Source: a virus. From it: a DNA stretch of 32,052 bases. This document shows positions 4,672 to 20,344 of this stretch, one piece after another. Each line of letters starts with the position of its first letter. The stretch's first letter is position 1. The notes under the pieces are model-generated. The model saw nothing but the letters and a program-made list of their open reading frames with translations. It was not told the DNA's origin and did not search any database. The DNA lies in IMG/VR virus record IMGVR_UViG_3300012920_007377, positions 1 to 32,052 of that record; one strand, given 5' to 3'. The position numbers and the translations under genes were made by a program.

Positions 4672-4700
4672 ACTATATATGCAATAAATGGATAAGTCAA
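4672..4700 (-). promoter_or_regulatory. Sigma70-type promoter for the topoisomerase genes
   Basis: Minus strand: TTGACT (4695-4700), 17-bp spacer, TATAGT (4672-4677). The -35 box overlaps the TGA stop of the HD hydrolase gene. No palindrome lies in the spacer, unlike the promoter at 5236-5264. Confidence 0.65.
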
Positions 4701-5212
4701 CTAATTTGCTGACTTACCACTGAAAATAACTCTGTATCATGCACTTTATCCATTGCATCCAACAGTAATTCTTTCTCTTTTAAGTACACTTTAGCAAATT
4801 TAGGATCATGCTTAACAATACTTTTTGTGTTGTCCAGCAAGTCTGCTAACTTGATAAACTGTGCTTCTGCAGGCGAATCTGCACTGTGCTTTCTGTCTAT
4901 TGCTTTACGAACAGCTCTGTTACCGTCTGTAGGCCTACTAATATCTGTCAACCAACCTACTAAATTTGCAACTTTAAGTCCAAAATTCTGTTCTATATCC
5001 ACAATTGCTATGTGCGTGTCTTCTACAACATCATGTAAAAATGCGGCCATTTGCATTTCTTCTGTTCCGCCATAATCTTTTACAATTTGTGCAACTGCCA
5101 AAGGATGCATCATATAAGGCTCGCCAGTATACTTGCGCTTTTGATCGCCATGTGCTTTATATGCAAAATAAAAGGCTTTATATAATTTTGAATCTTTGTA
5201 ACTCTTACTCAT
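4697..5212 (-). CDS. HD-domain protein, (p)ppGpp hydrolase-like (MESH1/SpoT HD type)
   Basis: 171 aa, the size of single-domain alarmone hydrolases. Motifs in order: AYKAHGDQKRKYTGEPYMMHP (His21, His36), AAFLHDVVEDT (the HD pair His60/Asp61 and the ED), and IKLADLLDNTKSI (Asp124). This set is typical of RelA/SpoT HD domains, which remove pyrophosphate from (p)ppGpp using Mn2+. No synthetase, TGS or ACT domain is present. A phage hydrolase would keep the host stringent response off during infection; this is inference. TAGGAGA site at the start. It is the only gene between a palindrome-containing promoter (5236-5264) and the topoisomerase promoter. Confidence 0.85.
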   Translation of the reverse strand: MSKSYKDSKLYKAFYFAYKAHGDQKRKYTGEPYMMHPLAVAQIVKDYGGTEEMQMAAFLHDVVEDTHIAIVDIEQNFGLKVANLVGWLTDISRPTDGNRAVRKAIDRKHSADSPAEAQFIKLADLLDNTKSIVKHDPKFAKVYLKEKELLLDAMDKVHDTELFSVVSQQIS

Positions 5213-5235: not shown

Positions 5236-5264
5236 ATGATAAAGTAAAACGTTTTACTTGTCAA
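5236..5264 (-). promoter_or_regulatory. Promoter with palindromic operator (copy 1)
   Basis: Minus strand: TTGACA (5259-5264), 17-bp spacer, TATCAT (5236-5241). The spacer is filled by the perfect palindrome AAGTAAAACGTTTTACTT (5242-5259). Three near-identical copies lie at 11419-11447, 12252-12280 and 12971-12999. The placement between -35 and -10 is that of a repressor operator, though the regulator is not identified. Confidence 0.8.
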
Positions 5265-5291
5265 GCAAAAAAATTATATAAGGTGTTTAAA

Positions 5292-5309
5292 TAAGCGGAA
5301 ATCCGCTTA
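5292..5309 (+). repeat. Inverted repeat in the leader of the 5363 gene
   Basis: TAAGCGGAAATCCGCTTA forms a 7-8 bp hairpin 54 bases before the start codon. No U tract follows, so it is more likely an mRNA leader structure or protein-binding site than a terminator. Confidence 0.45.
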
Positions 5310-5362
5310 AATATATGCAGTTGAACAAGGTTTCAACTCAAACAGAGAAGGAGGGTTCAATA

Positions 5363-5596
5363 ATGGACATTCTTAATAAAGTAAAAGCATGGGCTGGATC
5401 ACTAGCGGAAGTTGGTGTAAGTTTAGCGGCTCTTGCAATCGTACTAGAGGTACTAGGTATGGGCGATATGCCTTTCATGCCTGCAGGCCTTAGTGTCGTA
5501 GATAACGTAAGTGCAATGCTAGCATCATTAGGCGCACAAGGCGTTATGGGATTGATTGCAATCTGGGTACTATGGAGTATCTGGGAACGTAAGTAA
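5363..5596 (+). CDS. Small two-span membrane protein, unknown
   Basis: 77 aa starting MDILNKVKAWAGSLAEV. The start has a very strong AAGGAGG site. Two hydrophobic segments (about 13-29 and 55-73) flank a short loop containing GMGDMPFMPAG. It stands alone on the plus strand between minus-strand genes and has its own terminator, so it is probably transcribed separately and strongly. Size and topology would fit a holin or a virion-associated membrane peptide, but there is no direct evidence for either. Confidence 0.75.
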   Translation: MDILNKVKAWAGSLAEVGVSLAALAIVLEVLGMGDMPFMPAGLSVVDNVSAMLASLGAQGVMGLIAIWVLWSIWERK

Positions 5597-5630
5597 TCCA
5601 AAACCACACATAATCGATTAGTACTTTAAT

Positions 5631-5675
5631 AAGGTTGAAAACCCTAGATCTGGAAATCAACCTTCTTTACTTTTT
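5631..5675 (+). terminator. Intrinsic terminator of the 5363 gene
   Basis: AAGGTTGA (5631-5638) pairs with TCAACCTT (5657-5664) and is followed by CTTTACTTTTT. It overlaps the last codons of the convergent dioxygenase gene. Confidence 0.65.
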
Positions 5676-6326
5676 CCAAAAGGGATCTGTCCAACTATCC
5701 TCTAATAATGTTGGTCTACTTACAGTCATAGTGTAAAGACTATTTTCCAATAATTTATTATATTGTTCTGTAGGGTCACCACACCAGGGTGCGCCTATAC
5801 ATAATGTAACTTTTTCTTCTGTACCAGGCTTTAGTGCATGTGGATGACTGCCGTCTAGTACATATGTGTGGTAATTATCAGGTATGTATACTTCATTTAA
5901 ATCTCTATCTATAAAGTAAAGTTTATCTACATTACCATTTAATACAATTCTAAATTTATGTTGATTTGTGCCTATTTCATCTTCTGTACTATCCAAGTGT
6001 ACATTTAATCCATAGCCTGCAGGTGTACGTAAAATTGTAACTCTGCCTTCGGGCTCCATCCAAGGAAAGACTTTTGTGTTTAAAATTTGTTGAGTACGAT
6101 ACCATTTTTTTGCTGGCTCTGTGTAATTGTACTCGCCATATTTTGTATTTTTACCTTTTGCTTGTCCGCCCAATTGTCCGCCTGCATTATATACAGGCAA
6201 CATGTAACACCCTCTAAATTCATTAAAGTGCCAACTATCAGCATCACTACTCATAACTTCAGAATACATTGCTTGTCTGTCTTCTTCTGATATTTTTAAG
6301 TCTAATGCTGTAAATGTAATATTCAT
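5667..6326 (-). CDS. 2-oxoglutarate/Fe(II) dioxygenase-like (Asp/Asn hydroxylase type)
   Basis: 219 aa from MNITFTALDL. A jelly-roll iron centre is visible: His110-x-Asp112 in GYGLNVHLDS, and a distal His161 or His163 in LDGSHPHALKPG; the downstream EEKVTLCIG strand carries a Lys where many members have the Arg that binds 2-oxoglutarate. Marine T4-like phages commonly carry several such enzymes of unknown substrate. The ATG at 6326 overlaps the zinc-ribbon stop (ATGA), which is why this start is preferred to an upstream in-frame ATG at 6383 lying inside that gene. Confidence 0.75.
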   Translation of the reverse strand: MNITFTALDLKISEEDRQAMYSEVMSSDADSWHFNEFRGCYMLPVYNAGGQLGGQAKGKNTKYGEYNYTEPAKKWYRTQQILNTKVFPWMEPEGRVTILRTPAGYGLNVHLDSTEDEIGTNQHKFRIVLNGNVDKLYFIDRDLNEVYIPDNYHTYVLDGSHPHALKPGTEEKVTLCIGAPWCGDPTEQYNKLLENSLYTMTVSRPTLLEDSWTDPFWKK

Positions 6327-6496
6327 TCTGTGTCTAGGGGATCCTGTTTTTTTACATTGCCTTTGTGTCCGCAATGAGGACAATAAAGTTGCAGTCTATC
6401 TATACAGAGTTTATCCTCCATTGTAGCATATGTAAACCAATTGCTACATTTACTGCATGTTAAGTGCCAAATTATTTCTTTGACTGCATTGAACAT
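6323..6496 (-). CDS. 57-aa zinc-ribbon protein
   Basis: The peptide MFNAVKEIIWHLTCSKCSN... has two CxxC knuckles, CSKC (14-17) and CPHC (39-42), spaced as in a zinc ribbon, then a Lys-rich tail. Its stop overlaps the dioxygenase start as ATGA. No clear ribosome-binding site; a late-promoter motif CATAAATAA lies 9-15 bases upstream (6505-6511). Partner or nucleic-acid target unknown. Confidence 0.65.
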   Translation of the reverse strand: MFNAVKEIIWHLTCSKCSNWFTYATMEDKLCIDRLQLYCPHCGHKGNVKKQDPLDTE

Positions 6497-6504
6497 TTCA
6501 ATGT

Positions 6505-6511
6505 TATTTAT
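6505..6511 (-). promoter_or_regulatory. Late-promoter-like motif ATAAATA
   Basis: Minus strand ATAAATA, between tRNA-Gly and the zinc-ribbon start. It matches the T4 late consensus TATAAATA at seven of eight positions. Confidence 0.4.
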
Positions 6512-6515
6512 GGTA

Positions 6516-6589
6516 TGGAGCGGGTACCCGGAATCGAACCGAGGTCTTTGGCTTGGAAGGCGATTGTAATACCATTATACTATACCCGC
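6516..6589 (-). tRNA. tRNA-Gly (UCC)
   Basis: 74 nt with encoded CCA. Acceptor GCGGGTA pairs with TACCCGC, anticodon loop CTTCCAA carries TCC, and the T arm is CTCGG-TTCGATT-CCGGG. Reads GGA/GGG codons. Confidence 0.95.
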
Positions 6590-6596
6590 AACACGG

Positions 6597-6803
6597 CTAT
6601 TCGAAATACTTTTCAATCATTTCGAGTCGATCGCTTGCCGCTGCCATTTTATCAAGTTCAGCTATGATTGCTTCTGTAACATCACTATGTTCGCCGATAC
6701 CTGCTGGCATGGCTCTATAGACTTCAATGTTTGCTTTATGCACTGCAATCTCGCCTTCTGCTTGCTTACGAGCAGCTTCAATTAATGCTTCTCCAACTTT
6801 CAT
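6597..6803 (-). CDS. Conserved small marine-phage protein, unknown
   Basis: 68 aa, almost entirely helical: MKVGEALIEAARKQAEGEIA, then AMPAGIGEHSDVTEAI and a C-terminal ELDKMAAASDRLEMIEKYF. Proteins with this HSDV/T-EAI-x-ELDK pattern are frequent in T4-like cyanophages, from memory. AGAGGAA site. Its stop is seven bases before tRNA-Gly. Confidence 0.75.
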   Translation of the reverse strand: MKVGEALIEAARKQAEGEIAVHKANIEVYRAMPAGIGEHSDVTEAIIAELDKMAAASDRLEMIEKYFE

Positions 6804-6814
6804 ACTGTTTCCTC

Positions 6815-7315
6815 TTATTCGTGTTCACCACCAGGATCATCATGATCCAGCAAAACCTTTTCGCCATTTATCCACAAATTACGTCGAGTGCGACTTACAC
6901 TGTGATACCCAGGGCGCAGGCTAAAAAGTTTTGGATTCCTTTTTGCTGTTTCAAATGTACCTACTGTAACTGCAATAGCCGCGAGTACTATCATGTGTGC
7001 AATTGCGCTAACGCCAAACACAATGAAACTACTCAAATACATACTGAAAACAATACACCACATCCATGCTAAAATTTGCAATACCATATGGCGTGTACTC
7101 GTATCTGGAATATGTCGTAGTGGATTCCTGTCGGCGTCCATTACACTAGTCCAGCATTCGTATACCCATTCCTTCATACTGAAGACTCCTTGTTCAAATG
7201 TTACTTTTTTTGGATAATGCGCATCTGCGGTATCCCTAAAATCTATAGCATCATAAATGTTATAAAACTTTTGACTTACTTTGCTATCTCTAAAATACGC
7301 AGTTACTTTGTACAT
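6815..7315 (-). CDS. Two-span membrane protein, unknown
   Basis: 166 aa from MYKVTAYFRDS (GGAG site; a longer frame would begin inside tRNA-Leu). The N-terminal 80 residues are soluble (SKVSQKFYNIYDAIDFRDTAD...), then two adjacent hydrophobic spans (about 82-103 and 107-125), then a basic and acidic tail ending DHDDPGGEHE. The N-terminal part resembles small proteins that take in sequence-encoded metadata in no known way; no family recognised. Confidence 0.65.
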   Translation of the reverse strand: MYKVTAYFRDSKVSQKFYNIYDAIDFRDTADAHYPKKVTFEQGVFSMKEWVYECWTSVMDADRNPLRHIPDTSTRHMVLQILAWMWCIVFSMYLSSFIVFGVSAIAHMIVLAAIAVTVGTFETAKRNPKLFSLRPGYHSVSRTRRNLWINGEKVLLDHDDPGGEHE

Positions 7316-7330
7316 TACATTCTCCAATTT

Positions 7331-7415
7331 TGGTGCGAGTAGAGGGACTTGAACCCCCACGTCTTGCGACACTAGAACCTAAATCTAGCGTGTCTACCAA
7401 TTTCACCATACTCGC
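7331..7415 (-). tRNA. tRNA-Leu (UAG)
   Basis: 85 nt including CCA; acceptor GCGAGTA, anticodon loop TTTAGGT, long variable arm as expected for leucine. First of a cluster of four tRNA genes transcribed from a promoter at 7710-7738. Confidence 0.93.
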
Positions 7416-7418
7416 ATA

Positions 7419-7494
<76 letters not shown>

Positions 7495-7504
7495 ACTGGT
7501 TTAT

Positions 7505-7512
7505 TATTTATA
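7505..7512 (-). promoter_or_regulatory. Late-promoter-like motif TATAAATA inside the tRNA cluster
   Basis: Minus strand TATAAATA, exact match to the T4 late consensus, between the Trp-type and Thr tRNAs. It could add late transcription of tRNA-Thr and tRNA-Leu and of the membrane-protein gene beyond. Confidence 0.45.
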
Positions 7513-7516
7513 AATT

Positions 7517-7601
7517 TGGCACAGGTGGAGGGATTCGAACCCACTCAGCTAAAGCACTGGTTTTGGAGACCAGCCTACCTCTCCTACTGTAGCGCACCTG
7601 C
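7517..7601 (-). tRNA. tRNA-Trp (CCA) with unusual long variable region
   Basis: 85 nt including CCA. Acceptor GCAGGTG/CACCTGT, anticodon stem CTGGT/ACCAG around loop CTCCAAA, so anticodon CCA. Discriminator base G73 fits tryptophan. Oddities: a 12-nt variable region (normal Trp has 5), a 10-nt D loop, C rather than T at position 8, and a T-T mismatch in the T stem (GTGGG/CCCTC). The core around the anticodon is Trp-like while the overall frame is that of a class II tRNA. Confidence 0.8.
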
Positions 7602-7607
7602 GTATTA

Positions 7608-7697
7608 TGGCGGAGGATGTGGGAGTCGAACCCACTCTACGCTTATACACGTAGTACGGATTAGCAATCCGCTGCATTACCGTCCTGCCCATCCTCC
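7608..7697 (-). tRNA. tRNA-Ser (GCU)
   Basis: 90 nt including CCA; acceptor GGAGGAT/ATCCTCC, anticodon loop TTGCTAA, long variable arm (TACTACG...CGTAG stem) as normal for serine. Promoter-proximal member of the cluster. Confidence 0.94.
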
Positions 7698-7709
7698 TAT
7701 TAAGTTACT

Positions 7710-7738
7710 AATATAAGGCAAACACGGTTGGAAGTCAA
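7710..7738 (-). promoter_or_regulatory. Sigma70-type promoter for the Ser-Trp-Thr-Leu tRNA cluster
   Basis: Minus strand TTGACT (7733-7738), 17-bp spacer, TATATT (7710-7715). The -35 box touches the TAG stop of the 7739-7933 gene. Start of transcription would be about ten bases before the serine tRNA. Confidence 0.7.
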
Positions 7739-7933
7739 CTACTTTTTTAATTTAAAATAGATAAACTCTTCGCCAGCTTCATTACGACTTGTAATTGCTG
7801 GAGATCCATCTGGAATTGTCTTACCAATATAATGCCAGTTGTGTCCTGCTTTTACTTGTTTGTCAGCAGTAGCAAAAAATTCTGCATTATCTTGGAAAAA
7901 TAATCCTGTCATTAAAACTAGAACTATACTCAT
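7739..7933 (-). CDS. Small exported or membrane-anchored protein, unknown
   Basis: 64 aa with hydrophobic N-terminus MSIVLVLMTGLFFQD, then a hydrophilic part with WHYIGKTIPDGSPAI and a Lys-rich end FIYFKLKK. TAAGGAG site. Upstream lies a minus-strand ATAAATA motif (7958-7964). No family recognised. Confidence 0.65.
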   Translation of the reverse strand: MSIVLVLMTGLFFQDNAEFFATADKQVKAGHNWHYIGKTIPDGSPAITSRNEAGEEFIYFKLKK

Positions 7934-7957
7934 TTTATTCTCCTTAAAGTATGTATA

Positions 7958-7964
7958 TATTTAT
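7958..7964 (-). promoter_or_regulatory. Late-promoter-like motif ATAAATA
   Basis: Minus strand AGTCAATAAATATATA, with the core 25 bases before the 7933 start; the same 16-base string occurs on the plus strand upstream of the 23649 gene. Confidence 0.45.
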
Positions 7965-7971
7965 TGACTAA

Positions 7972-7993
7972 GGGGGCAAGTTGCCCTGCCCCC
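7972..7993 (-). repeat. GC-rich hairpin after the outer-membrane protein gene
   Basis: GGGGGCA (7972-7978) pairs with TGCCCCC (7987-7993); a nested alternative GGGCA-AGT-TGCCC is also possible. No T run follows on the minus strand, whereas AATTTGTTTTC follows on the plus strand. A transcript-end or processing structure is possible. Confidence 0.5.
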
Positions 7994-8030
7994 AATTTGT
8001 TTTCTAGTAAAAATAATCTTTTCAGTATTT

Positions 8031-8429
8031 TTAGAAGCTAAATGACACACCTACTGTGATTTCATTGCGATCTTCTGCGTTGAAATCGTATGATGTCTCT
8101 GCATATGCTTTTGCACTGTCGCTTATTTGATAATCCATTCCCATTTCTAATAATGGTAACTGGCCGTCGTCTAACATATTCATAATAGCAAGATCATCAC
8201 CACTTGCGTGGTCTGTTTCATAAACAGTGATTGGTGATTCTGCCCATAAACTTAATGGACCAGCAACGTCCCAACGTACTTCTGGTTCTACTGTAATATG
8301 GTTAGTTCCTGCTTCCACTTTGTGAAATGCTTTTGCTTCTGTGTTTAGTGATACACCATTCCCAAGCTCTGCCGCTGAAACTGATGTTGCTGCAAATAGT
8401 GCAACAATTGCTAATAATGTTGAACGCAT
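8031..8429 (-). CDS. Small outer-membrane beta-barrel-like protein
   Basis: 132 aa with a signal peptide MRSTLLAIVALFAATSVSAA cut before ELGNG, then alternating beta strands (VEPEVRWDV, LSLWAESPITVY, LLEMGMDYQI, AKAYAETSYDF) and the terminal strand ITVGVSFSF. A final Phe on an amphipathic strand is the recognition signal of outer-membrane proteins. About 112 mature residues would form a very small barrel or barrel fragment. AAAGGAAA site. A phage copy could modify the host surface, for example to block superinfection, but this is inference. Confidence 0.7.
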   Translation of the reverse strand: MRSTLLAIVALFAATSVSAAELGNGVSLNTEAKAFHKVEAGTNHITVEPEVRWDVAGPLSLWAESPITVYETDHASGDDLAIMNMLDDGQLPLLEMGMDYQISDSAKAYAETSYDFNAEDRNEITVGVSFSF

Positions 8430-8465
8430 GTTCTTTTCCTTTAGTTCGTCTTATCGTTAGTCAAT

Positions 8466-8498
8466 AAAAAATGCAGTGCGAAGTATGCCGCATTGCAT
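8466..8498 (-). terminator. Intrinsic terminator of the tmRNA transcript
   Basis: On the minus strand a 10-bp stem (ATGCAATGCG with CGCACTGCAT, one G-T pair), 8-nt loop, then TTTTTT. It lies at the 3' end of the tmRNA precursor. Confidence 0.8.
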
Positions 8499-8608
8499 CA
8501 TATATACTTAGTTACAGATACCACGAGTTTCAAGGCCTGTTAATAAATTAGTTGAATGTGTGTTGAAAATGCCACACTTCTGTTGCTAGGCAGTGGCCGC
8601 CCCCTTAA

Positions 8609-8653
8609 TTATGCCGCTAGGGCGTAATCAGAAGGTGCAAAATTATCGTTTGC
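8609..8653 (-). other. tmRNA proteolysis-tag reading frame
   Basis: Resume codon GCA at 8653; encodes 14 residues ANDNFAPSDYALAA followed by TAA. With the alanine delivered by the charged tmRNA, stalled proteins would receive a 15-residue tag. ANDNFA is common to alphaproteobacterial tags; the middle PSDYA is a distinctive segment to compare with host tags. Confidence 0.92.
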
Positions 8654-8744
8654 AATTATAGTTTTTGACCAATAACGCAGTCATCCGGTTAACTCCACGC
8701 CTCTACTTACTACCTGTCGATCCTGGTTCGGCCCCATAAAAAAG

Positions 8745-8876
8745 CTATAAACCGTTTTTTAATATACGTAAAGCAACGGCTTTATTTTCTGTGTGTATAA
8801 GAATCCAACCTTTTTCGTCTTCTACGATATAGTATCTGACTCTTTTACTGTTTTCTTTTTCAATTAATCGTCTCAT
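8745..8876 (-). CDS. 43-aa open frame filling the tmRNA intervening segment
   Basis: MRRLIEKENSKRVRYYIVED then EKGWILIHTENKAVALRIL and KNGL. It starts seven bases after the encoded CCA of the acceptor piece and stops nine bases before the first base of the coding piece, so it occupies nearly all of the 148-base spacer that must be removed from the precursor. Codon choice and residue pattern look protein-like, but there is no clear ribosome-binding site. A longer frame beginning at 8948 would translate the acceptor piece itself and is not credible. Could be a real peptide or a chance frame. Confidence 0.4.
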   Translation of the reverse strand: MRRLIEKENSKRVRYYIVEDEKGWILIHTENKAVALRILKNGL

Positions 8877-8953
8877 AGCTTTTTGGTGGAGCCGTCGGGT
8901 ACCGCCCCCGAGTCCAGTATAGTGTTGAATTTGCTTCAACGTTAACAATACTA

Positions 8954-8982
8954 TTTATATAGTATTTTAACTATTTTGTCAA
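8954..8982 (-). promoter_or_regulatory. Strong promoter for tmRNA with overlapping late motif
   Basis: Minus strand TTGACA (8977-8982), 17-bp spacer, TATAAA (8954-8959). The same bases contain TATAAATA (8952-8959), an exact T4 late consensus, so the tmRNA could be expressed both early and late. Confidence 0.75.
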
Positions 8983-8983
8983 G

Positions 8984-9202
8984 TTACCACTTAACACTTA
9001 ACTTTTGCTTAAATGCTCTTTGACTTCTAATTGCGTTCATACATGAAAGTAATCGTCTGGATCTTTCCATTGGTTTGCCATAACCATTTTTAGTCTTGCT
9101 TAATTGATGTTGTTCGTTTTCTTTTGCAAATTCTTTACTAAGAATAGTTTCTATTAACATTAAATCTGAATCACTGAGATTCTGCAATTGTTGTGCCACC
9201 AT
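8984..9202 (-). CDS. Small basic protein, unknown
   Basis: 72 aa from MVAQQLQNLSDSDLMLIETI. The start at 9202 has an AGGAGA site and overlaps the upstream gene by 32 bases. N-terminal half acidic helix, C-terminal half strongly basic (GKPMERSRRLLSCMNAIRSQ and KQKLSVKW), suggesting RNA or DNA contact. No family recognised. Confidence 0.6.
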   Translation of the reverse strand: MVAQQLQNLSDSDLMLIETILSKEFAKENEQHQLSKTKNGYGKPMERSRRLLSCMNAIRSQRAFKQKLSVKW

Positions 9203-9404
9203 TATGAAATCTCCTGTTGTAAGCCTCTTCAAATCCTTCTTCATAAAGATAAAGGGGAGCACCGTTGCTCCCATCAATCCATAATCTTTTGAAATAGCTG
9301 TCTTTCGATGCAAGGACCGTTTGCTCTGATGTATTGAGATGGCCTTTTACCATCCAAAAATATCTGTGGGCTTCCTTGTGATGTTCTCTTTCCGCTTCTG
9401 TCAT
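9171..9404 (-). CDS. Small conserved phage protein, unknown
   Basis: 77 aa beginning MTEAEREHHKEAHRYFWMVK, with an AAAGGAG site. Charged N-terminal helix, then a strand-rich middle (SNGAPLYLYEEGFEEAYNRR). A GTAAATA late-like motif lies about 30 bases upstream (9434-9440). Confidence 0.65.
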   Translation of the reverse strand: MTEAEREHHKEAHRYFWMVKGHLNTSEQTVLASKDSYFKRLWIDGSNGAPLYLYEEGFEEAYNRRFHNGGTTIAESQ

Positions 9405-9454
9405 TTGCGTACTCCTTTCATCAGTTGACGTAGTATTTACACAGGCTAATAATG

Positions 9455-9598
9455 TTAGCGCAAATTAAGTACATTTTTATACATAATGCGCAACTGTTTT
9501 TCTACATTACTCCAATATTGTTTTCCCCATTCACTAGTGCAAGTATTGTATGCTTTTTTACAGTTCATAATTAATTTGGTTGCTCTTTGTTTTGTCAT
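9455..9598 (-). CDS. 47-aa basic protein, unknown
   Basis: Starts MTKQRATKLIMNCKKAYNTC. The 9598 start is chosen for its CAGGAGG site and the ATGA overlap with the 37-aa membrane peptide. Two Cys and many Lys/Arg and aromatic residues. No family recognised. Confidence 0.55.
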   Translation of the reverse strand: MTKQRATKLIMNCKKAYNTCTSEWGKQYWSNVEKQLRIMYKNVLNLR

Positions 9599-9708
9599 GT
9601 TAATCCTCCTGTAATTAAATAAAAAATCCAATTTAGTACTAAAGTAGCACTTATAATAATTACTATCATTGCTAATAGCATAACGGCTTCGTTGGGTTCG
9701 TAATCCAT
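9595..9708 (-). CDS. 37-aa single-span membrane peptide
   Basis: Starts MDYEPNEAVMLLAMIVIIIS; one transmembrane segment spans residues 9-32. GAGGAAA site; stop overlaps the next gene start as ATGA. Diverges from the 9730 gene with only 21 bases between. Confidence 0.55.
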   Translation of the reverse strand: MDYEPNEAVMLLAMIVIIISATLVLNWIFYLITGGLT

Positions 9709-9717
9709 GTTTCCTCA

Positions 9718-9724
9718 CTAAATA
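9718..9724 (+). promoter_or_regulatory. Late-promoter-like motif CTAAATA
   Basis: CTAAATA on the plus strand, six bases before the ATG at 9730. With late start sites a few bases downstream of this motif, the mRNA would be almost leaderless. Confidence 0.45.
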
Positions 9725-9729
9725 ATAAT

Positions 9730-10170
9730 ATGAAAGACGAATACGTAAATGCCTTTCACGATGTTATTAAAGAAACTACAGAAACACGTGGTTATAGCAT
9801 TCCTGTAGATGTAGAAGCCTATCTCGTTATGCTTCTAAGTAGTTATGTTGAACGCACAGATTTTTTACCTAATCCAAGTTTTGCAGAACAACATATTAAA
9901 TTAACACACAATAAACCTTATCATGCTAAAGAGCTTGGCGATGTGTGCCTTTTTGTAACAGGCGTTTTTCCAGATTATGGCACTAAGGCTGGATTGCCTA
10001 ATGAATACTTTCAAAATATAGGACGTAATAGTTATCACGTTGCTAGCATAAAATTAAACACGGAATTATTTTCCGTGCTTTGTAAACATTTTCCACTTGT
10101 AAGTAACATTTTAAAAAGTGCTACTGGTAATCATAAAACTCAAAAAATAGTAGAACATTTATTAGGATAG
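9730..10170 (+). CDS. Conserved hypothetical protein
   Basis: 146 aa, MKDEYVNAFHDVIKETTETR. No signal peptide or membrane span. Mixed alpha/beta; C-terminal half contains GRNSYHVASIKLNTELFSVL. No ribosome-binding site; it may be read from a leaderless late mRNA. Stop is one base before the 3' end of convergent tRNA-Leu. No family recognised. Confidence 0.65.
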   Translation: MKDEYVNAFHDVIKETTETRGYSIPVDVEAYLVMLLSSYVERTDFLPNPSFAEQHIKLTHNKPYHAKELGDVCLFVTGVFPDYGTKAGLPNEYFQNIGRNSYHVASIKLNTELFSVLCKHFPLVSNILKSATGNHKTQKIVEHLLG

Positions 10171-10171
10171 T

Positions 10172-10255
10172 TGGTGCGCCCACCCGGACTCGAACCGGGA
10201 CGCCATAAGCGACAGATTTTAAGTCTGTTGTGTCTACCTATTCCACCATGGGCGC
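10172..10255 (-). tRNA. tRNA-Leu (UAA)
   Basis: 84 nt including CCA; acceptor GCGCCCA/TGGGCGC, anticodon loop CTTAAAA, class II variable arm. Second leucine tRNA in the window, reading UUA/UUG, codons common in this AT-rich genome. Confidence 0.94.
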
Positions 10256-10261
10256 AATCAA

Positions 10262-10540
10262 CTACTTGGGCTCTTTACCCGTAATTGCTGTCATTTTCTT
10301 GATGATTCCTGTAACTGCTGTTTCAGTTAACCAACCCTTTACAGTATCACCTTCCTGTGTAATACCAGGTAACTCTACCATATTTGCGCCTTGGAAAACA
10401 CCAATCTCATAAAGTCCTGCACTGCCACCATAACTTCCTTCATGACATACTACACTTAATTGATACTTTCCAAAGTTCAACAAGGCAGATTTGCCTTTAG
10501 GTATATGCTGTTCTGTAAATTTTATATCTTCAAACTGCAT
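10262..10540 (-). CDS. Conserved marine-phage protein, unknown
   Basis: 92 aa from MQFEDIKFTEQHIPKGKSAL; GGAGG site; start forms TAATG with the 56-aa membrane gene. Strand-rich with LNFGKYQLSVVCHEGSYGG and a C-terminal helix GWLTETAVTGIIKKM. The pattern is common in T4-like cyanophages from memory, without assigned function. Confidence 0.7.
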   Translation of the reverse strand: MQFEDIKFTEQHIPKGKSALLNFGKYQLSVVCHEGSYGGSAGLYEIGVFQGANMVELPGITQEGDTVKGWLTETAVTGIIKKMTAITGKEPK

Positions 10541-10710
10541 TATAAACCTCCAAAATACCATACTAGTACGGCACATACTACTATGAACGGTGCATACTGA
10601 AATCCTAACTTAGCAAAGCCAATCAAAATACCAACTACTACACCTAACATTACACCTATGATTGCAAGTATTTGCAAACTTTGCCAGGCTAAATCAAATT
10701 CTCCGCCCAT
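10540..10710 (-). CDS. 56-aa two-span membrane protein
   Basis: Starts MGGEFDLAWQSLQILAIIGV; hydrophobic spans about 11-32 and 40-55, ending VWYFGGL. TAATG overlaps at both ends (10710 and 10540) place it firmly in the operon. No family recognised. Confidence 0.6.
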   Translation of the reverse strand: MGGEFDLAWQSLQILAIIGVMLGVVVGILIGFAKLGFQYAPFIVVCAVLVWYFGGL

Positions 10711-10964
10711 TATACAGGCACTCTATAAACACGAACTGCACCACTAGCAAGGCGAACTGTCTGAAATTTTACATCAGGATTCTTTTTCATATACCTATAA
10801 CATGCACTTGCAGTACGATTACCACCGCCACTGTTCCGTTTAGCATTAACGTCATTTGCAGGTACATCAAAATAATGACCTACTTTAATTTTATCAAAGG
10901 GAAATTTATTTTTAGGATCCTTTTTGAGATCCATTGGTGTCCCTTTACTAACTTTATATTGCAT
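10710..10964 (-). CDS. Conserved small phage protein, possible DNA-binding-like fold
   Basis: 84 aa with AAGGAGA site. FPFDKIKVGHYFDVPANDVN, then RNSGGGNRTASACYRYMKKN and a final strand VRLASGAVRVYRVPV. The FPFDKxxVGxYFDVP...YxxKN...YRV arrangement recurs in T4-like phage small proteins and superficially resembles domains with a basic helix between strands. Function unknown. Confidence 0.7.
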   Translation of the reverse strand: MQYKVSKGTPMDLKKDPKNKFPFDKIKVGHYFDVPANDVNAKRNSGGGNRTASACYRYMKKNPDVKFQTVRLASGAVRVYRVPV

Positions 10965-10975
10965 AACTTTCTCCT

Positions 10976-11389
10976 TTATGCGGCTTCCAACCAGCGATCG
11001 AGTGTTGCACGATCTACATTTAGTTCGCTTGCAAGTTTCGCCATTTGAGCATCTTCTTCAGCCGCTTCTTGTCTTTCACGTTCCAAATCATACTCAATGC
11101 TTTTACAAGCACTTTCACAAAGCTCATTTAACTCTGCATCAGTCATACTACTGAAGTCATGAGCTCTAGCATAACTTTTACTATATGCTTCTGCAAGTGT
11201 ATAGTAAGCATCTTCTTCTAGTTCAATACGTTTGAACTCTGCAAGTGTACCAGTAGGAACTCGCTCGCTCCAATACTTAGTATCACTTGGATCCACAAGT
11301 TTACCCATCCAACGATCAGGACTTTCAGCCATCCATGCATCTGCTTCTGCATGTTGCTCTAAAATATAATCTACAAGTGCCTGTTCCAT
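10976..11389 (-). CDS. Conserved hypothetical, helical
   Basis: 137 aa, acidic and helical. MEQALVDYILEQHAEADAWM, then PDRWMGKLVDPSDTKYWSER; C-terminal coiled-coil-like stretch RERQEAAEEDAQMAKLASEL followed by a short NVDRATLDRWLEAA that resembles a helix-turn-helix end. AGGAGTT site. First gene after palindromic promoter copy 2. Confidence 0.65.
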   Translation of the reverse strand: MEQALVDYILEQHAEADAWMAESPDRWMGKLVDPSDTKYWSERVPTGTLAEFKRIELEEDAYYTLAEAYSKSYARAHDFSSMTDAELNELCESACKSIEYDLERERQEAAEEDAQMAKLASELNVDRATLDRWLEAA

Positions 11390-11418
11390 AAGTAACTCCT
11401 GTTTTTAACTATACCTAC

Positions 11419-11447
11419 ATATTAAGGTAAAACGTTTTACTTGTCAA
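11419..11447 (-). promoter_or_regulatory. Promoter with palindromic operator (copy 2)
   Basis: Minus strand TTGACA (11442-11447), 17-bp spacer, TAATAT (11419-11424). Spacer contains the palindrome GTAAAACGTTTTAC (11427-11440). Drives the 11389-10262 gene block. Confidence 0.8.
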
Positions 11448-11455
11448 CAACTTTT

Positions 11456-11587
11456 TTACATTTTTCCTGTTTTTGTAGGATATCCTGCCGTTATAGCAAG
11501 GTTACGCAGAAACAATACCTGCTCTGCGTTAACACCTTCATAAATTGTTAAATGCCCATCTGGCATTGCAATTTCCAACCAGTACAT
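11456..11587 (-). CDS. 43-aa small protein, unknown
   Basis: Starts MYWLEIAMPDGHLTIYEGVN; TAATG overlap with the upstream gene at 11587. Stops nine bases before the -35 box of promoter copy 2. Beta-rich N-terminus; no family recognised. Confidence 0.5.
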   Translation of the reverse strand: MYWLEIAMPDGHLTIYEGVNAEQVLFLRNLAITAGYPTKTGKM

Positions 11588-11901
11588 TAGTACTCCTTAT
11601 AATTGCCTTGTTCTTCATTGTAAGCATAACCAGCCATGTATTCCAGCACTTGCTCCTCAGTCATATCTTCCTGACTAATACGGTCGCTGGAACCGGTTGC
11701 TTCAACATAAAAATGTGGGTCAGAACCACGACGGTAGTAACTATCAGCACTTCCACGATCCCAAGGTCCTCCATGTCTAATTAATTGGTTATCATCTTCC
11801 CAAGTACAATCATATAATAGTCCTTGGTATTCGAAAAATTCACGTTTTTGACTTTCCAAAAAGTCTGCAACATTGGTAAAAATCAAATCGTTCTGGCTCA
11901 T
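11587..11901 (-). CDS. Conserved hypothetical, acidic
   Basis: 104 aa, MSQNDLIFTNVADFLESQKR, then YDCTWEDDNQLIRHGGPWDR and DPHFYVEATG. Both ends share TAATG junctions with neighbours. No family recognised. Confidence 0.65.
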   Translation of the reverse strand: MSQNDLIFTNVADFLESQKREFFEYQGLLYDCTWEDDNQLIRHGGPWDRGSADSYYRRGSDPHFYVEATGSSDRISQEDMTEEQVLEYMAGYAYNEEQGNYKEY

Positions 11902-12221
11902 TAGTCCAACCTCGAATTGACGTAAAGTTTAATACCAGTAAGTTTACCAAATATCTCTACATATTTTTGAGCGGCGGCTTCTTTGATGTCCACATTTTGC
12001 ACATAACTACCACTTGGGTTCCAAAGCTGATATCCACCACCTGAATAGCTCTTTTTAAAACCAGCGGCTTTAAGGGCTTTACCTTCTTTAGTATTGCCTT
12101 TAACATAACTTGTTACCCAAGCAAAACCACAAGGATAACCATCTCCATGCATGCTTTCAAGCACTTTAGCTTCTGCTTTTGCTTCTCCACATGCTACCTG
12201 ATGCGCTGTCATAATGTCCAT
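11901..12221 (-). CDS. Conserved phage protein ending SRLD, unknown
   Basis: 106 aa with AAAGGAG site. Motifs PCGFAWVTSY, EGKALKAAGFKKSYSGGGYQ and terminal NSRLD. From memory this pattern (CGFAWV, a gap, a GG-y-x-W, terminal SRLD) occurs in phages of several bacterial groups, with no assigned role. First gene after palindromic promoter copy 3. Confidence 0.72.
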   Translation of the reverse strand: MDIMTAHQVACGEAKAEAKVLESMHGDGYPCGFAWVTSYVKGNTKEGKALKAAGFKKSYSGGGYQLWNPSGSYVQNVDIKEAAAQKYVEIFGKLTGIKLYVNSRLD

Positions 12222-12251
12222 AAGTCACTCCTTTTTATTAACTATACCATC

Positions 12252-12280
12252 AGTATAAGGTAAAACGTCTTACTTGTCAA
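12252..12280 (-). promoter_or_regulatory. Promoter with palindromic operator (copy 3)
   Basis: Minus strand TTGACA (12275-12280), 17-bp spacer, TATACT (12252-12257). Spacer AGTAAGACGTTTTACCT keeps the palindrome with one mismatch. Drives the 12221-11456 block. Confidence 0.78.
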
Positions 12281-12283
12281 CCT

Positions 12284-12466
12284 TTATTTTACAGATTCAG
12301 GAAAATCCACTGCCATTTGATGTTCGAACTCTGTTACTGCATCTTTCTTTGCAAGTAACATCTTTTCCAAACTGTAAATTGCGGCGTATTTTTCATCACT
12401 TGCGCCTTCGTTCAATGCAATTAGTGCATTTTCCAAAACTGCAATATCTTCAAGTAAGTCTACCAT
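12284..12466 (-). CDS. 60-aa helical protein, unknown
   Basis: MVDLLEDIAVLENALIALNE with further heptad-like helix (SLEKMLLAKKDAVTEFEHQM). TAATG junction with the upstream gene at 12466. Ends just before promoter copy 3. No family recognised. Confidence 0.6.
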   Translation of the reverse strand: MVDLLEDIAVLENALIALNEGASDEKYAAIYSLEKMLLAKKDAVTEFEHQMAVDFPESVK

Positions 12467-12732
12467 TATGCTACCTTTCTGTTAAACAATGCATAAAACT
12501 CATTGTCAACTGTTGTCCACTGATCTGCCAGTGTGTCAAAAGCTTCTTGTATGTAGCTATCAGCATATATACCACTAAGTGTCATGTACATATCTGACTC
12601 TACAAAATTCCAAAAGTCTGTAGTGCCTTCGCCTTTTGCCACGTTGTCATCTGCAATTACTGCTTCATCAAATGCAGCTACAATATCAGCATGTATTGCG
12701 CTACCGTTTTCTAAATGAACAATTCTGGACAT
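12466..12732 (-). CDS. Conserved hypothetical, acidic
   Basis: 88 aa with AAGGAG site: MSRIVHLENGSAIHADIVAA, then GTTDFWNFVESDMYMTLSGI. Helical, soluble, no family recognised. Confidence 0.6.
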   Translation of the reverse strand: MSRIVHLENGSAIHADIVAAFDEAVIADDNVAKGEGTTDFWNFVESDMYMTLSGIYADSYIQEAFDTLADQWTTVDNEFYALFNRKVA

Positions 12733-12741
12733 ATCTACTCC

Positions 12742-12939
12742 TTAAAGTTTAACAGTTTCTATGGATAAAATATCTTGTGCAACTCCGCCTTCTGCAACAA
12801 AATCTGCAATTGCTCCGTCACAAGACTCTTTTGCAGTAGAACCCCAAGAGTTCTGACCACAACTATCTACAATAAATTTAGTACCATCTTCAAAAGTTTT
12901 AACGTAAAGTATCGAAGTATTGTAATCCATATTTGACAT
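12742..12939 (-). CDS. Conserved hypothetical
   Basis: 65 aa, MSNMDYNTSILYVKTFEDGT; a second in-frame ATG three codons later is an alternative start. Middle segment DSCGQNSWGSTAKESCDGAI carries two Cys. First gene after promoter copy 4. No family recognised. Confidence 0.6.
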   Translation of the reverse strand: MSNMDYNTSILYVKTFEDGTKFIVDSCGQNSWGSTAKESCDGAIADFVAEGGVAQDILSIETVKL

Positions 12940-12970
12940 TTTGTTCTTTCTTTTTATTAACTATACCATG

Positions 12971-12999
12971 ATAATAAGGTAAAACGCTTTACTTGTCAA
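12971..12999 (-). promoter_or_regulatory. Promoter with palindromic operator (copy 4)
   Basis: Minus strand TTGACA (12994-12999), 17-bp spacer, TATTAT (12971-12976). Spacer palindrome GTAAAGCGTTTTAC has one change. Lies in the divergent region between the minus-strand block and the plus-strand cluster. Confidence 0.78.
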
Positions 13000-14799: not shown

Positions 14800-16854
14800 T
14801 CATTTGCTTGATGCGATAAAGACTCCGTTCCAGTCTTTGGGGAGGTCTTGCGTTTGCATGTAAGCACAACGTTCCATCCACATATCGTAATATCCATCAA
14901 TTTGTCCATCAAACTTTCCTTTGTTTAATGCACACAATTCGCTAGCACGTTTAAAGTCTTGTGCCTTGTAATGTGTGTGCATTAAATCATGTATTTCTCT
15001 GCTTTGTTCATATTGTGCTTTGTATTTTCCAGGATTGTCTAATACTGTGTATATACTAAGTCCAACACTTTTACCTTTTACTTGTAAGTCATCAACTTTA
15101 AGGAAAAAGAAATCATCTTTTGTATGTTTATATGTGGCTTCGCCTACTAGTAACACACATCCATATTCTTTACACTTGCTTTCGATACGGGCGGCTGAGC
15201 TGACGCTGTCCCCCAGTACATCATAACTGTGCCTTGCTGTTGACCCCATTTCTCCAATGTACCCAAGTCCGGAATTAATACCTGCGCCCATTCCAACTGG
15301 AGGCCTACCTTCGCTAGTAATCTTTTCATTAAATTTCTCCACTGCTTTTAGCATGTCGAGTCCACATTGCACCGCTGTTCGTGGGTGCTGTGGATCATCT
15401 ATAGGAGCATTGTGTATGTGCATACTTGCATCTCCTATATACTTAATTATCATTCCGTTGCTGTCTAAAACGGGCTGAGTAATAGCGTCCATGTATCCGT
15501 TCATAACTTTCGTCAATCCCTTTACATCATCTCCAAAACTTTCGCCCAGTGGTGTAAACCCACGCAAGTCACTAAAAACTATGCTTACTTCTTTTTTAAC
15601 CCCTTCTTTGATAAGTGCTGGATTTTCCTGTAGCATTTTAACTACAGTAGGACTTGCATAACCTGCAAACTGCTTTTTAATTGCTTGTTTCTGTAAAAAT
15701 TCATCTAAAAACTTTACAATGTAACGCAATAGTCCTACAACTACAATAAATGCAGCTGGTATAAATCCATCTACTAATATATTTTGTGTTTCAAACATAT
15801 AGTAACTTGTGTAAACAATACCGCCTGTACTGCCTACAAAAAATATTAATCCTATATAAGTCCAACGTGCTAATAATATTACCAGCAATCCTATTATTAC
15901 AATAGCGGCTAATTCTGCCCATGCTTCTGCATCTGGATGTCTGCTAATATTACTTTCATTAAATACTGTACCCAACAAAACTGCTTGCATTTCGTGTCCA
16001 TAAACACTACCTGCGGCTGTTGCAATTGGTTGTGTTGTTCCTGCCGCTGTTGGGCCTACAAATACAATACCTCCTTCAAAGTCGTCAGGTAAACTTAATG
16101 CACTAAGACTAGTACTACGCTGACTCCAGTCTATCCAAACACGCCCTAAATTATCTGTTTGTAAAAATCCATATTGTGGAATACGTAACTTGTCTACTCC
16201 TAGTGGATTTAATTTTATTTGGAAACTTGGATCTCCAGCAAGCACTCGCAACACTTCCATTGTAACATTAGGATACAAAGTATCTCCGCTGTTTAGCACA
16301 AGTGGTGCTCTACGTGTAACACCATCTAATTCAGGAAACGTGTTTATAATACCTGCGCCTACTGCTTTGTTTTCAAGTATAGGCACATTTGCAATAATAC
16401 CTGGCATACTTGGAATAAGGTCTCTGTACTGTGGATTAATAACTGCCGCACCAGGATTAATGGGCTCATTTTTACCTTGTGAACTACCTAGCATACTTAA
16501 AACAACAGGATAGTCTTGCATTAATTGTGCAAGTTCTAGATCCTGTCCACTGCGATCTGTTTCGCTCATTAATACATTAAACACAACAAGTCCTGCATTG
16601 CGTTCGTATAATTGTTTGATTAAATCAGCATAATCGCCACGTGGAAACGGCCACTGTCCATATTGATTTATTGTGGGTTCATCTATGTTAACAGTATAAA
16701 TGTTGTTTAACATAGGCTCTTGGTTCAATATTAGTGTATCAAAATATCTTAATCTTAGACTTTCTACAAAATTAAAGTTAGAATAGAATGTCCAACTAAG
16801 TAATACCAATGCAACTACACTGTATATTGGACTTAGTAAAAGTTTCTTTACCAT
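14800..16854 (-). CDS. CHASE2 sensor fused to class III adenylate-cyclase-like domain
   Basis: 684 aa. N-terminal span (10-26), extracytoplasmic CHASE2 domain (about 35-300: TVNIDEPTINQYGQWPFPR, GGIVFVGPTAAG, VYGHEMQAVLL), three spans (about 312-385), then a class III nucleotide cyclase (about 420-610). Metal aspartates D429 (VFSDLRGFT) and D475 (KYIGDASM), adenine-selecting K471 and D545, and R556 are present, but the transition-state Asn of the usual VNxAxR motif is Ser (VSSAAR, S552). Activity may therefore be reduced or altered. Last gene of the curli-like operon; FecR proteins and CHASE2 cyclases occur together in bacteria, so it may sense the surface module and signal through cAMP. AAAGGAA site. 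Confidence 0.88.
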   Translation of the reverse strand: MVKKLLLSPIYSVVALVLLSWTFYSNFNFVESLRLRYFDTLILNQEPMLNNIYTVNIDEPTINQYGQWPFPRGDYADLIKQLYERNAGLVVFNVLMSETDRSGQDLELAQLMQDYPVVLSMLGSSQGKNEPINPGAAVINPQYRDLIPSMPGIIANVPILENKAVGAGIINTFPELDGVTRRAPLVLNSGDTLYPNVTMEVLRVLAGDPSFQIKLNPLGVDKLRIPQYGFLQTDNLGRVWIDWSQRSTSLSALSLPDDFEGGIVFVGPTAAGTTQPIATAAGSVYGHEMQAVLLGTVFNESNISRHPDAEAWAELAAIVIIGLLVILLARWTYIGLIFFVGSTGGIVYTSYYMFETQNILVDGFIPAAFIVVVGLLRYIVKFLDEFLQKQAIKKQFAGYASPTVVKMLQENPALIKEGVKKEVSIVFSDLRGFTPLGESFGDDVKGLTKVMNGYMDAITQPVLDSNGMIIKYIGDASMHIHNAPIDDPQHPRTAVQCGLDMLKAVEKFNEKITSEGRPPVGMGAGINSGLGYIGEMGSTARHSYDVLGDSVSSAARIESKCKEYGCVLLVGEATYKHTKDDFFFLKVDDLQVKGKSVGLSIYTVLDNPGKYKAQYEQSREIHDLMHTHYKAQDFKRASELCALNKGKFDGQIDGYYDMWMERCAYMQTQDLPKDWNGVFIASSK

Positions 16855-17776: not shown

Positions 17777-18559
17777 TCAGTTTTGTACTACGGATACTGA
17801 ACATCCGCCAAATGTTTGACAATTTTGTGTCAAACTATAACTCATAGCACTGCTAGTGCTACTTTGTGTTAAACTTAAATCTGTTCCATAATTACCATCT
17901 AATGTAATTGTTGCTGTATGCCCATATGATTTCTTTTGATGTACAAACACATTGTTATCGTCATTGTTAATAGTCAAATCTAGTGTTTTGTCCTGGTTTG
18001 CTTCTTGCATTACATGTACATTGTTGTCATTACCAGTTATATCTACATCCATATTATGATCGCTTATGCTGTTTTGTGAACGTTGGGATAGTTTTATACT
18101 ATTGTCATTACCATTAACAGACAATTCCATATTATGTCCTCCGTGTTCAACGTTATCATACAACCAATCGTTTGCTGTAATCTTATATCCTTGTCCTAGT
18201 TCCATACTATTGCCTGTTCCTGTTACATCTAAGTCCATTGCGTCTGCATTGCAAAGGCTACCATTATGACATTTTTGTTTTGCAAGCATTGTATTATTGT
18301 TGCCGTCTATAGATAATTCTATTGATGCACCATCTGTTTCTTGGTTAAGTGTAACATCAATATTATCGCCATCTAAACTAACAGGTGCTGTACTCGTGCC
18401 TATAGTGTTATCTTCTCCATCTTGTGTAATAGATAAATTTAGATCGTCCCCTACTTGGTTAATGTAAATATCATTGGAATAAGTTATCGTTGGAACAGCC
18501 ATCATCACACTGAGTAATACTAATCTGATTATTAGTGCTGACCCCCAATTTGTATCCAT
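17777..18559 (-). CDS. Curlin-repeat protein 2 (CsgA/B-like)
   Basis: 260 aa from MDTNWGSALIIRL; the start is uncertain because the frame is open further upstream inside the FecR gene (18586), and MMAVPTITYS at 18505 is also possible. Signal peptide to about TITYS, then mature start NDIYINQVGDDLNLSITQDG. At least seven degenerate repeats with the pattern xLxVxGNDNxxxxxQ (for example LSVNGNDNSIKLSQ and VDITGNDNNVHVMQ), close to the curlin strand-loop-strand Q-x-G-x-N-x5-Q. Mature N-terminus is nearly the same as that of curlin protein 1, so the two are paralogues. Probable amyloid fibre or surface-strand subunit exported by CsgG. Confidence 0.75.
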   Translation of the reverse strand: MDTNWGSALIIRLVLLSVMMAVPTITYSNDIYINQVGDDLNLSITQDGEDNTIGTSTAPVSLDGDNIDVTLNQETDGASIELSIDGNNNTMLAKQKCHNGSLCNADAMDLDVTGTGNSMELGQGYKITANDWLYDNVEHGGHNMELSVNGNDNSIKLSQRSQNSISDHNMDVDITGNDNNVHVMQEANQDKTLDLTINNDDNNVFVHQKKSYGHTATITLDGNYGTDLSLTQSSTSSAMSYSLTQNCQTFGGCSVSVVQN

Positions 18560-19625: not shown

Positions 19626-20335
19626 TAGTCGCTCTGGGTTATATCTACGTCTTGACTATCTCCGTCAAACGTTGCATTTACTGTTGCATCGTTAACACCA
19701 CTTTGATCTATATCATATGTGCTACCGCCGCCAGTAATGTCAAGTATTACAGTATGTCCAGCACTGTCTCCATTACCATCCATGTCAATGTTTAATGTAT
19801 TACCTTCATCACTATTTGCACTTGTTGTAGCTAAACTATTTGCATTGTTCATTACAACTGTAAGTACTGCACTTGTACCGTCAATATCAGAGTTAATAAT
19901 ATTGTTATCACCTGTTACAGTAAAACTAACTGTTGCACTATCTGCATCCTCATTTTCTCCAATATCAAAGTCAAATGTGTTGTCATTACCAGTTGTTGTT
20001 ATGTTTAATGTTACAGTATCACAATCTCCTGTAGAAGTAGAACTACACTGTAAATCTACTGTGTTAGTGTTACCTGTAAATTGCCAAGTACCAGTGTAAT
20101 CTGTGCCTTTAATTGTTGCCACTATTTCGTTAAAATTACCTGTTTGTGTAATTGCAAAAGTCATATCATCACCAGCCAAAGTCATATCTGCCTGTGATGT
20201 TCCTACTTTGTTATCTTGCCCGTCTTGCGTAATATCTAAATCTAAAGTATCGCCAATTTGATCTATATAAATCTCGTTTGCCAGTACACTTGATCCAGAC
20301 ATTAGCATGAGCATTATTGTTAATATTCTAAGCAT
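19625..20335 (-). CDS. Curlin-repeat protein 1 (CsgA/B-like)
   Basis: 236 aa with signal peptide MLRILTIMLMLMSGSSVLA. Mature part starts NEIYIDQIGDTLDLDITQDG, then repeats such as FAITQTGNFNEIVATI, LNITTTGNDNTFDFDI, SFTVTGDNNIINSDI and ending DVDITQSD. The Q-x-G-x-N and I-x-Q spacing is that of curlin repeats, though degenerate and Asp-rich. Follows csgG after nine bases. Confidence 0.75.
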   Translation of the reverse strand: MLRILTIMLMLMSGSSVLANEIYIDQIGDTLDLDITQDGQDNKVGTSQADMTLAGDDMTFAITQTGNFNEIVATIKGTDYTGTWQFTGNTNTVDLQCSSTSTGDCDTVTLNITTTGNDNTFDFDIGENEDADSATVSFTVTGDNNIINSDIDGTSAVLTVVMNNANSLATTSANSDEGNTLNIDMDGNGDSAGHTVILDITGGGSTYDIDQSGVNDATVNATFDGDSQDVDITQSD

Positions 20336-20344
20336 TTTAGCTCT

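What the first reader, a model, noticed from the sequence alone, without database searches (positions are those of the whole stretch)
5236..12999. Four copies of a TTGACA-palindrome-TATNNT promoter: a phage regulon
At 5236-5264, 11419-11447, 12252-12280 and 12971-12999, the 17-bp spacer is a (near-)perfect palindrome centred on AAAACGTTTT. All four control minus-strand blocks: the (p)ppGpp-hydrolase gene and three blocks of small conserved genes. Other sigma70-type promoters here (4672, 7710, 8954, 22465, 25506) lack it. Conservation of spacing and of the palindrome implies a dedicated dimeric regulator acting at early promoters.
Basis: seen in the sequence. Interest (0 to 1): 0.82.

Follow-up and report, generated by a model that had tools for sequence, protein, structure and literature searches.

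The report
Dyad operator inside phage early promoters
Four promoters in this marine T4-like phage carry a mirror-image DNA site between their two polymerase-recognition boxes; dozens of related uncultured phages keep the same design, which suggests that a not yet identified paired protein switches a set of early genes off (or tunes them) together.

Summary
In detail: four minus-strand promoters, TTGACA-A-GTAARRCGYTTTAC-YT-TATNNT, each with an intact or 1-mismatch dyad GTAAAACGTTTTAC in the 17-bp spacer (4 seen; 0.01 per shuffle). It is not local. The same promoter occurs in 45 stretches of IMG/VR DNA, and in 59 with the centre left open. It was absent from 84,980 bacterial and archaeal genomes and from the five cultured phage relatives scanned. 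In large contigs it forms a regulon: about 20 copies in a 192-kb phage, beside ordinary promoters with random spacers. There the consensus relaxes to GTAAG-N4-CTTAC: the outer arms hold, the centre changes, and among 48 distinct sites the arms co-vary (p=0.0002; weaker in stricter tests). In one phage the element sits 2 bp nearer the -10 box. More distant homologues of the same genes have early promoters without it. The best explanation is a clade-specific operator, bound by a dimer that represses or times early transcription, carried on a shared promoter cassette. No regulator was found, although Pfam scans covered most small and mid-sized ORFs of one large contig (long family lists were cut). 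Regulator identity, repression and timing are inferred.

The parts
5236..5264 (-). Dyad promoter 1: TTGACA-A-GTAAAACGTTTTAC-TT-TATCAT; dyad at 5244-5257 (perfect)
4697..5212 (-). First gene behind promoter 1: 171-aa HD-domain hydrolase (HD_4 type, the fold of (p)ppGpp hydrolases)
   Evidence: Pfam PF13328 E=1e-18; phrog_990 metal-dependent phosphohydrolase
11419..11447 (-). Dyad promoter 2: TTGACA-A-GTAAAACGTTTTAC-CT-TAATAT; dyad at 11427-11440 (perfect)
   Evidence: kept in close relative L146
10262..11389 (-). Small-gene block behind promoter 2 (10976-11389, 10710-10964, 10540-10710, 10262-10576); the first, 137 aa, ends in a helix-turn-helix-like sequence LASELNVDRATLDRWL
12252..12280 (-). 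Dyad promoter 3: TTGACA-A-GTAAGACGTTTTAC-CT-TATACT; dyad at 12260-12273 (one broken pair)
   Evidence: homologous promoters in L132, L133
11456..12221 (-). Small-gene block behind promoter 3 (11901-12221, 11587-11901, 11456-11587)
   Evidence: 11901-12221 matches phrog_22149 of unknown function
12971..12999 (-). Dyad promoter 4: TTGACA-A-GTAAAGCGTTTTAC-CT-TATTAT; dyad at 12979-12992 (one broken pair)
   Evidence: same promoter in L036
12284..12939 (-). Small-gene block behind promoter 4 (12742-12939, 12466-12732, 12284-12466)

Best explanation
The four sites are members of a clade-specific family of sigma70-type early promoters in uncultured marine T4-like phages. Each holds a 14-bp dyad operator, consensus GTAAG-N4-CTTAC, in the 17-bp spacer between the -35 and -10 boxes, centred near -21. 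A dimeric DNA-binding protein, most likely phage-encoded, would bind the two half-sites; because the site overlaps the stretch RNA polymerase must cover, binding should block initiation. Host polymerase would read these strong promoters at once after infection, and the accumulating regulator would then turn the block of small early genes down together. The whole unit (-35, operator, -10, conserved start region, ribosome-binding site) has been copied to many genes as a cassette, while mutation of the operator centre and arms lets individual promoters differ in affinity. Shown here: the sites, their spread, the multi-copy regulon, symmetry that looks maintained by selection, absence from non-members. 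Inferred: that a protein binds, that it is a dimer, that it represses, that it is phage-encoded, and the timing.
For: (1) Four near-perfect dyads against 0.01 expected, all in spacers. (2) 45 viral stretches with the strict composite and 59 with the six central bases open; with the centre unforced it is RRCGYY in 34 of 45 distinct sites. (3) None in 257 Gb of bacterial and archaeal genomes. (4) Multi-copy regulon: about 20 in G001, several each in G009, G011 and G004, next to ordinary promoters with unrelated spacers. (5) For promoters selected without looking at the dyad, arm complementarity peaks at the spacer centre: 0.575 within sites against 0.470 between sites, within-phage shuffles p about 0.001; 48 distinct 14-mers selected on the left arm alone give 0.661 against 0.604, p=0.0002. 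(6) Perfect dyads with different centres (AACGTT, GACGTC, GATATC, GGATCC) and a paired arm change GTAA/TTAC to GCAA/TTGC in G004. (7) In G011 the same element lies 2 bp nearer the -10 with the 17-bp spacer unchanged, so it is a module of its own and not an extension of the -35. (8) Close homologues found without using the motif keep it (L132, L133, L134, L146), while remoter ones have other early promoters without it.
Against: No regulator gene was recognised in G001, nor an HTH_3 match over the cut-off in any of seven phage records, though several Pfam lists were cut at 25 families and only G001 was scanned broadly. When the covariation test is limited to sites that keep the AA...TT core and shuffled within phages it is not significant (p=0.12; pooled 0.012). 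Part of the similarity between copies must come from cassette duplication, since the start region is conserved too. No expression data exist and the host is unknown.
Confidence: 0.62

Rival explanations
1. Cassette only: the promoters are recent copies of one strong early promoter (like the mobile early-promoter cassettes described for T4-type phages), and the palindrome is inherited sequence with no protein bound to it.
For: Conservation runs from the -35 past +1 to the ribosome-binding site; copies sit in front of interchangeable small genes; sister phages have their own shared start regions with mostly random spacers.
Against: Spacer arms are kept while the centre changes, arms covary, the element shifts relative to the boxes in G011, and perfect dyads with different centres occur.
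Confidence: 0.2
2. Host operator: the dyad is the binding site of a host transcription factor, so that the phage senses host state.
For: No phage regulator was found; some host regulators bind palindromes of this size (own knowledge).
Against: The strict composite is absent from 84,980 species genomes and TTGACANGTAARNNNNYTTAC from 187 genomes of one candidate host family, reached from a weak IscU hint. These tests need the -35 box next to the dyad, so host sites placed elsewhere would be missed, and the host is unknown. The operator sequence varies between phage lineages.
Confidence: 0.12
3. Activator site: a dimer bound in the spacer helps polymerase, as MerR-type regulators do.
For: Position between -35 and -10 on the DNA.
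Against: Boxes are near consensus with an optimal 17-bp spacer, which needs no help; MerR-type promoters have 19-20 bp spacers (own knowledge).
Confidence: 0.06

Closest known systems
Operators of lambdoid repressors, above all phage P22 c2/Cro and 434 (14-bp sites, arms contacted, central 4 bp not; from own knowledge)
   Same: Short dyad with conserved outer arms and a freer 4-bp centre (AAG-N4-CTT core), overlapping a sigma70 promoter; several sites of graded quality per genome
   Different: Here about 20 scattered single sites over a T4-like genome rather than a tandem operator at one immunity region; no CI/Cro-like gene found
T4 early promoters and mobile early-promoter cassettes of T4-type phages (Arbiol et al. 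2010, not readable here; T4 early promoters reviewed in PMC2988021; per-phage promoter logos in PMC1524935)
   Same: Strong sigma70 promoters with extra conserved positions in front of small genes; each phage group has its own consensus
   Different: No dyad in the spacer is mentioned in the passages read of PMC2988021 and PMC1524935; here the symmetric element lies within the promoter itself
Pelagibacter phage HTVC008M and Methylophilales phage Melnitz
   Same: Closest cultured phages by curli CsgG (51% and 47%); phage-borne CsgG/CsgF and, in Melnitz, a two-piece tmRNA (PMC9004378)
   Different: No credible dyad promoter in either genome

Membership tests
Dyad operator overlapping a sigma70 promoter (class of site) | Symmetric site of HTH-dimer size at a fixed place in the promoter | tested here: met
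   14-bp dyad centred in the 17-bp spacer in all four sites and many relatives
Dyad operator overlapping a sigma70 promoter (class of site) | Symmetry maintained by selection | tested here: met
   p=0.0002 over 48 distinct sites; weaker in a stricter subset, p=0.12; no correction for phylogeny
Dyad operator overlapping a sigma70 promoter (class of site) | A protein binds it and changes transcription | not testable with these tools
   needs footprint or reporter assay
Lambdoid CI/Cro-type control | XRE-type (HTH_3) repressor encoded by the phage | tested here: inconclusive
   no HTH_3 match over the cut-off in 7 phage records, but the records may be incomplete and only this one family was searched in all of them
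Lambdoid CI/Cro-type control | Tandem operators between divergent repressor genes | tested here: not met
   sites are single and scattered
T4-type early promoters | Strong sigma70 boxes before small genes in a T4-like genome | tested here: met
T4-type early promoters | Transcribed immediately after infection | not testable with these tools
   no expression data
MerR-type spacer activators | 19-20 bp spacer | tested here: not met
   spacer is 17 bp in all four sites

The most novel reading that the evidence does not exclude
A group of lytic T4-like marine phages runs a genome-wide early-gene regulon under one phage-encoded dimeric repressor of a new, unrecognised fold or family, giving programmed early shut-off (and possibly superinfection control), a step whose mechanism is still unknown in T4 itself.
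Probability: 0.3. Interest if true: 0.72.

Novelty: new variant of a known kind. Interest (0 to 1): 0.5.

Why it matters
How T4 shuts off its early promoters is described as still unknown (PMC2988021). A symmetric operator built into about 20 early promoters of a T4-like phage would make that question directly testable in this clade and would show regulon-style repression in phages usually thought to time genes by promoter strength, sigma appropriation and a late sigma factor. The motif is also a ready bait for finding the regulator and a marker for this uncultured phage group.

Tried and rejected
Regulator hunt: pattern search for helix-turn-helix in G001 and G004, Pfam on 145 G001 ORFs and on subsets (the lists were cut at 25 families), HTH_3 in seven phage records: nothing over a cut-off. 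The 137-aa protein behind promoter 2 has a helix-turn-helix-like C-terminus conserved among homologues, but Pfam matches are marginal (HTH_Tnp_1 E=0.048, DUF3853 E=0.065), the confident model (pLDDT 94) is all-helical with one long helix and a short terminal helix, no solved structure matches, it also occurs in phages without the dyad, and homologues in dyad phages (L016, G009) lack this tail: not accepted as the regulator. A T4 DsbA-like protein (named from memory) lies second behind a dyad promoter in G004 and occurs in G009 and G011, but was not detected in G001: left open. NtcA-like reading (GTA-N8-TAC) and LacI-family reading (central CG): set aside, since the centre varies and the position differs from activator sites. 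Host identity by IscU gave only generic, mostly beta/gammaproteobacterial matches. L043 site: probably unrelated, a contig with a T7-like RNA polymerase and an integrase and no proper -10. Sites in L094 and L041 with the start codon very close to +1 may be chance or another phage group. The upstream DNA printed for HD-hydrolase homologues shows no dyad promoter.

Full report
Observation. The window is a 32,052-base IMG/VR record of a T4-like marine phage: T4-type topoisomerase subunits, curli CsgG and CsgF, with CsgG closest to Pelagibacter phage HTVC008M and Methylophilales phage Melnitz, an alphaproteobacterial-type permuted tmRNA and nine tRNAs. Four 14-mers lie within one mismatch of GTAAAACGTTTTAC, against 0.01 per shuffled window. 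Promoter 1 drives an HD-domain hydrolase; promoters 2-4 drive three blocks of small genes, almost all without known function. The other sigma70-like promoters lack the dyad.

It is a regulon shared by many phages. An exact scan of viral contigs for TTGACANGTAARRCGYYTTACNTTA gave 45 stretches; with the six central bases free, 59. Most sites lie about 50-65 nt before a start codon of a small gene and are often repeated in one contig. With the centre unforced it was still RRCGYY in 34 of 45 distinct sites; some of these sites come from closely related contigs, so the count is not of independent events. The strict pattern was absent from one genome for each of 84,980 bacterial and archaeal species, where chance alone would give about 0.1 (own estimate).

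Whole-contig view. In the 192-kb contig G001 about 20 promoters share TTGACAAGTAAG-N4-CTTAC..TATAATAGTTATATAAGTTAAT, while many other sigma70-like promoters of the same contig have unrelated spacers and start regions. The operator centres differ: AAGGATCCTT, AAGGCGCCTT, AAGACGTCTT, AAGGCTCCTT. G009 (184 kb) carries GTAAGACGTCTTAC and variants; G004 (168 kb) carries GTAAAACGTTTTAC, GTAATGCGTTTTAC and GCAATGCGTTTTGC, the last a paired change of both arms; G011 (117 kb) has copies in which the element lies 2 bp nearer the -10 although the spacer stays 17 bp. The arms therefore behave as a separate symmetric element. Five cultured relatives (HTVC008M, Melnitz, phiM12, Atu_ph07, V45v66) have no credible copy.

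Statistics. For 42 promoters from four contigs chosen by -35, -10 and start region only, complementarity of the two arms was scanned over 34 possible centres. It stood out at the spacer centre: 0.575 within sites against 0.470 between sites. Shuffling within each phage gave p about 0.001, but some of that comes from mixing sites with and without the dyad: restricted to sites with the AA...TT core, p was 0.12 within phages and 0.012 pooled. With 48 distinct 14-mers selected on the left arm alone, arms covaried at p=0.0002, and at p=0.004 after requiring TT in the right arm. Symmetry is thus supported, covariation fairly but not overwhelmingly so. The tests do not correct for phylogeny, the pool includes loci that had been fetched with the motif, and several selections were tried.

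Motif-blind relatives. Homologues of the genes behind promoters 2 and 3 were fetched without using the motif. The closest ones keep the dyad (L132 and L146, which are one contig; L133; and, at neighbouring genes, L134, including a new perfect centre GATATC). Remoter ones have other early promoters, each phage group with its own start region and mostly random spacers. HD-hydrolase homologues in other phages show no dyad promoter in the upstream DNA printed, so the link to that gene is particular to this phage.

Regulator. None was identified. Pfam over 145 G001 ORFs and four subsets, a helix-turn-helix pattern, and HTH_3 in seven phage records found nothing over a cut-off; several of those lists were cut at 25 families and long ORFs were not scanned, so this is an incomplete negative. 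The 137-aa protein behind promoter 2 has a helix-turn-helix-like tail, but its predicted fold matches no solved structure and its spread does not follow the dyad. A DsbA-like protein in G004, G009 and G011 is an open lead.

Mechanism. A dyad centred in the spacer of an otherwise near-consensus promoter is where a repressor excludes polymerase; activators of the MerR type need longer spacers. The layout of conserved arms and a freer 4-bp centre recalls P22 and 434 operators (own knowledge). I therefore favour a dimeric repressor giving coordinated turn-down of early genes. Binding, repression and timing are inferred. The shared start region shows that cassette duplication also shaped the set, as for T4-type early-promoter cassettes, and this is the main rival.

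Verdict. Real, conserved and clade-specific; a new variant of a known kind of site, with the regulator missing.

Noticed in passing
window 8518-8986, minus strand: Permuted (two-piece) alphaproteobacterial-type tmRNA gene with tag ANDNFAPSDYALAA; its promoter spacer holds a different inverted repeat, ATAGT-N6-ACTAT. No glutamine riboswitch reached the Rfam cut-off, unlike what is reported for Melnitz.
   Followed up: partly
window 17777-21615, minus strand: Curli-like set: CsgF, CsgG, a curlin-repeat protein and a FecR-domain protein, next to a CHASE2 plus nucleotide cyclase protein (14800-16854); similar neighbours are annotated in HTVC008M.
   Followed up: partly
window 25534-25506 and 22493-22465, minus strand: A second promoter flavour with TAC directly before the -10 (ATACTATWWT), without the dyad; a similar ATACTA-TATAAA is seen at the tmRNA promoter.
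   Followed up: no
L145:2411-5300 and L144:445-5611: Two large phages (158 and 353 kb) carry many copies of another early promoter, TTGACAG...TATAATACATACA; several spacers hold a hairpin such as GCGCCGAAAGGCGC.
   Followed up: no
L150:2932, L151:146, L149 upstream of 3001: Early promoters of remoter relatives with other dyads in the spacer (TTGTTGTGAAAACAA; CTTTCTATA-AAAG-TATAGGAAG), which might mean that operator sequence differs by lineage; not tested against chance.
   Followed up: no
L084:5021-5278 (G004): Protein that looks like T4 DsbA (double-stranded DNA binding; identified from memory), second gene behind a dyad promoter; homologues in G009 and G011.
   Followed up: partly
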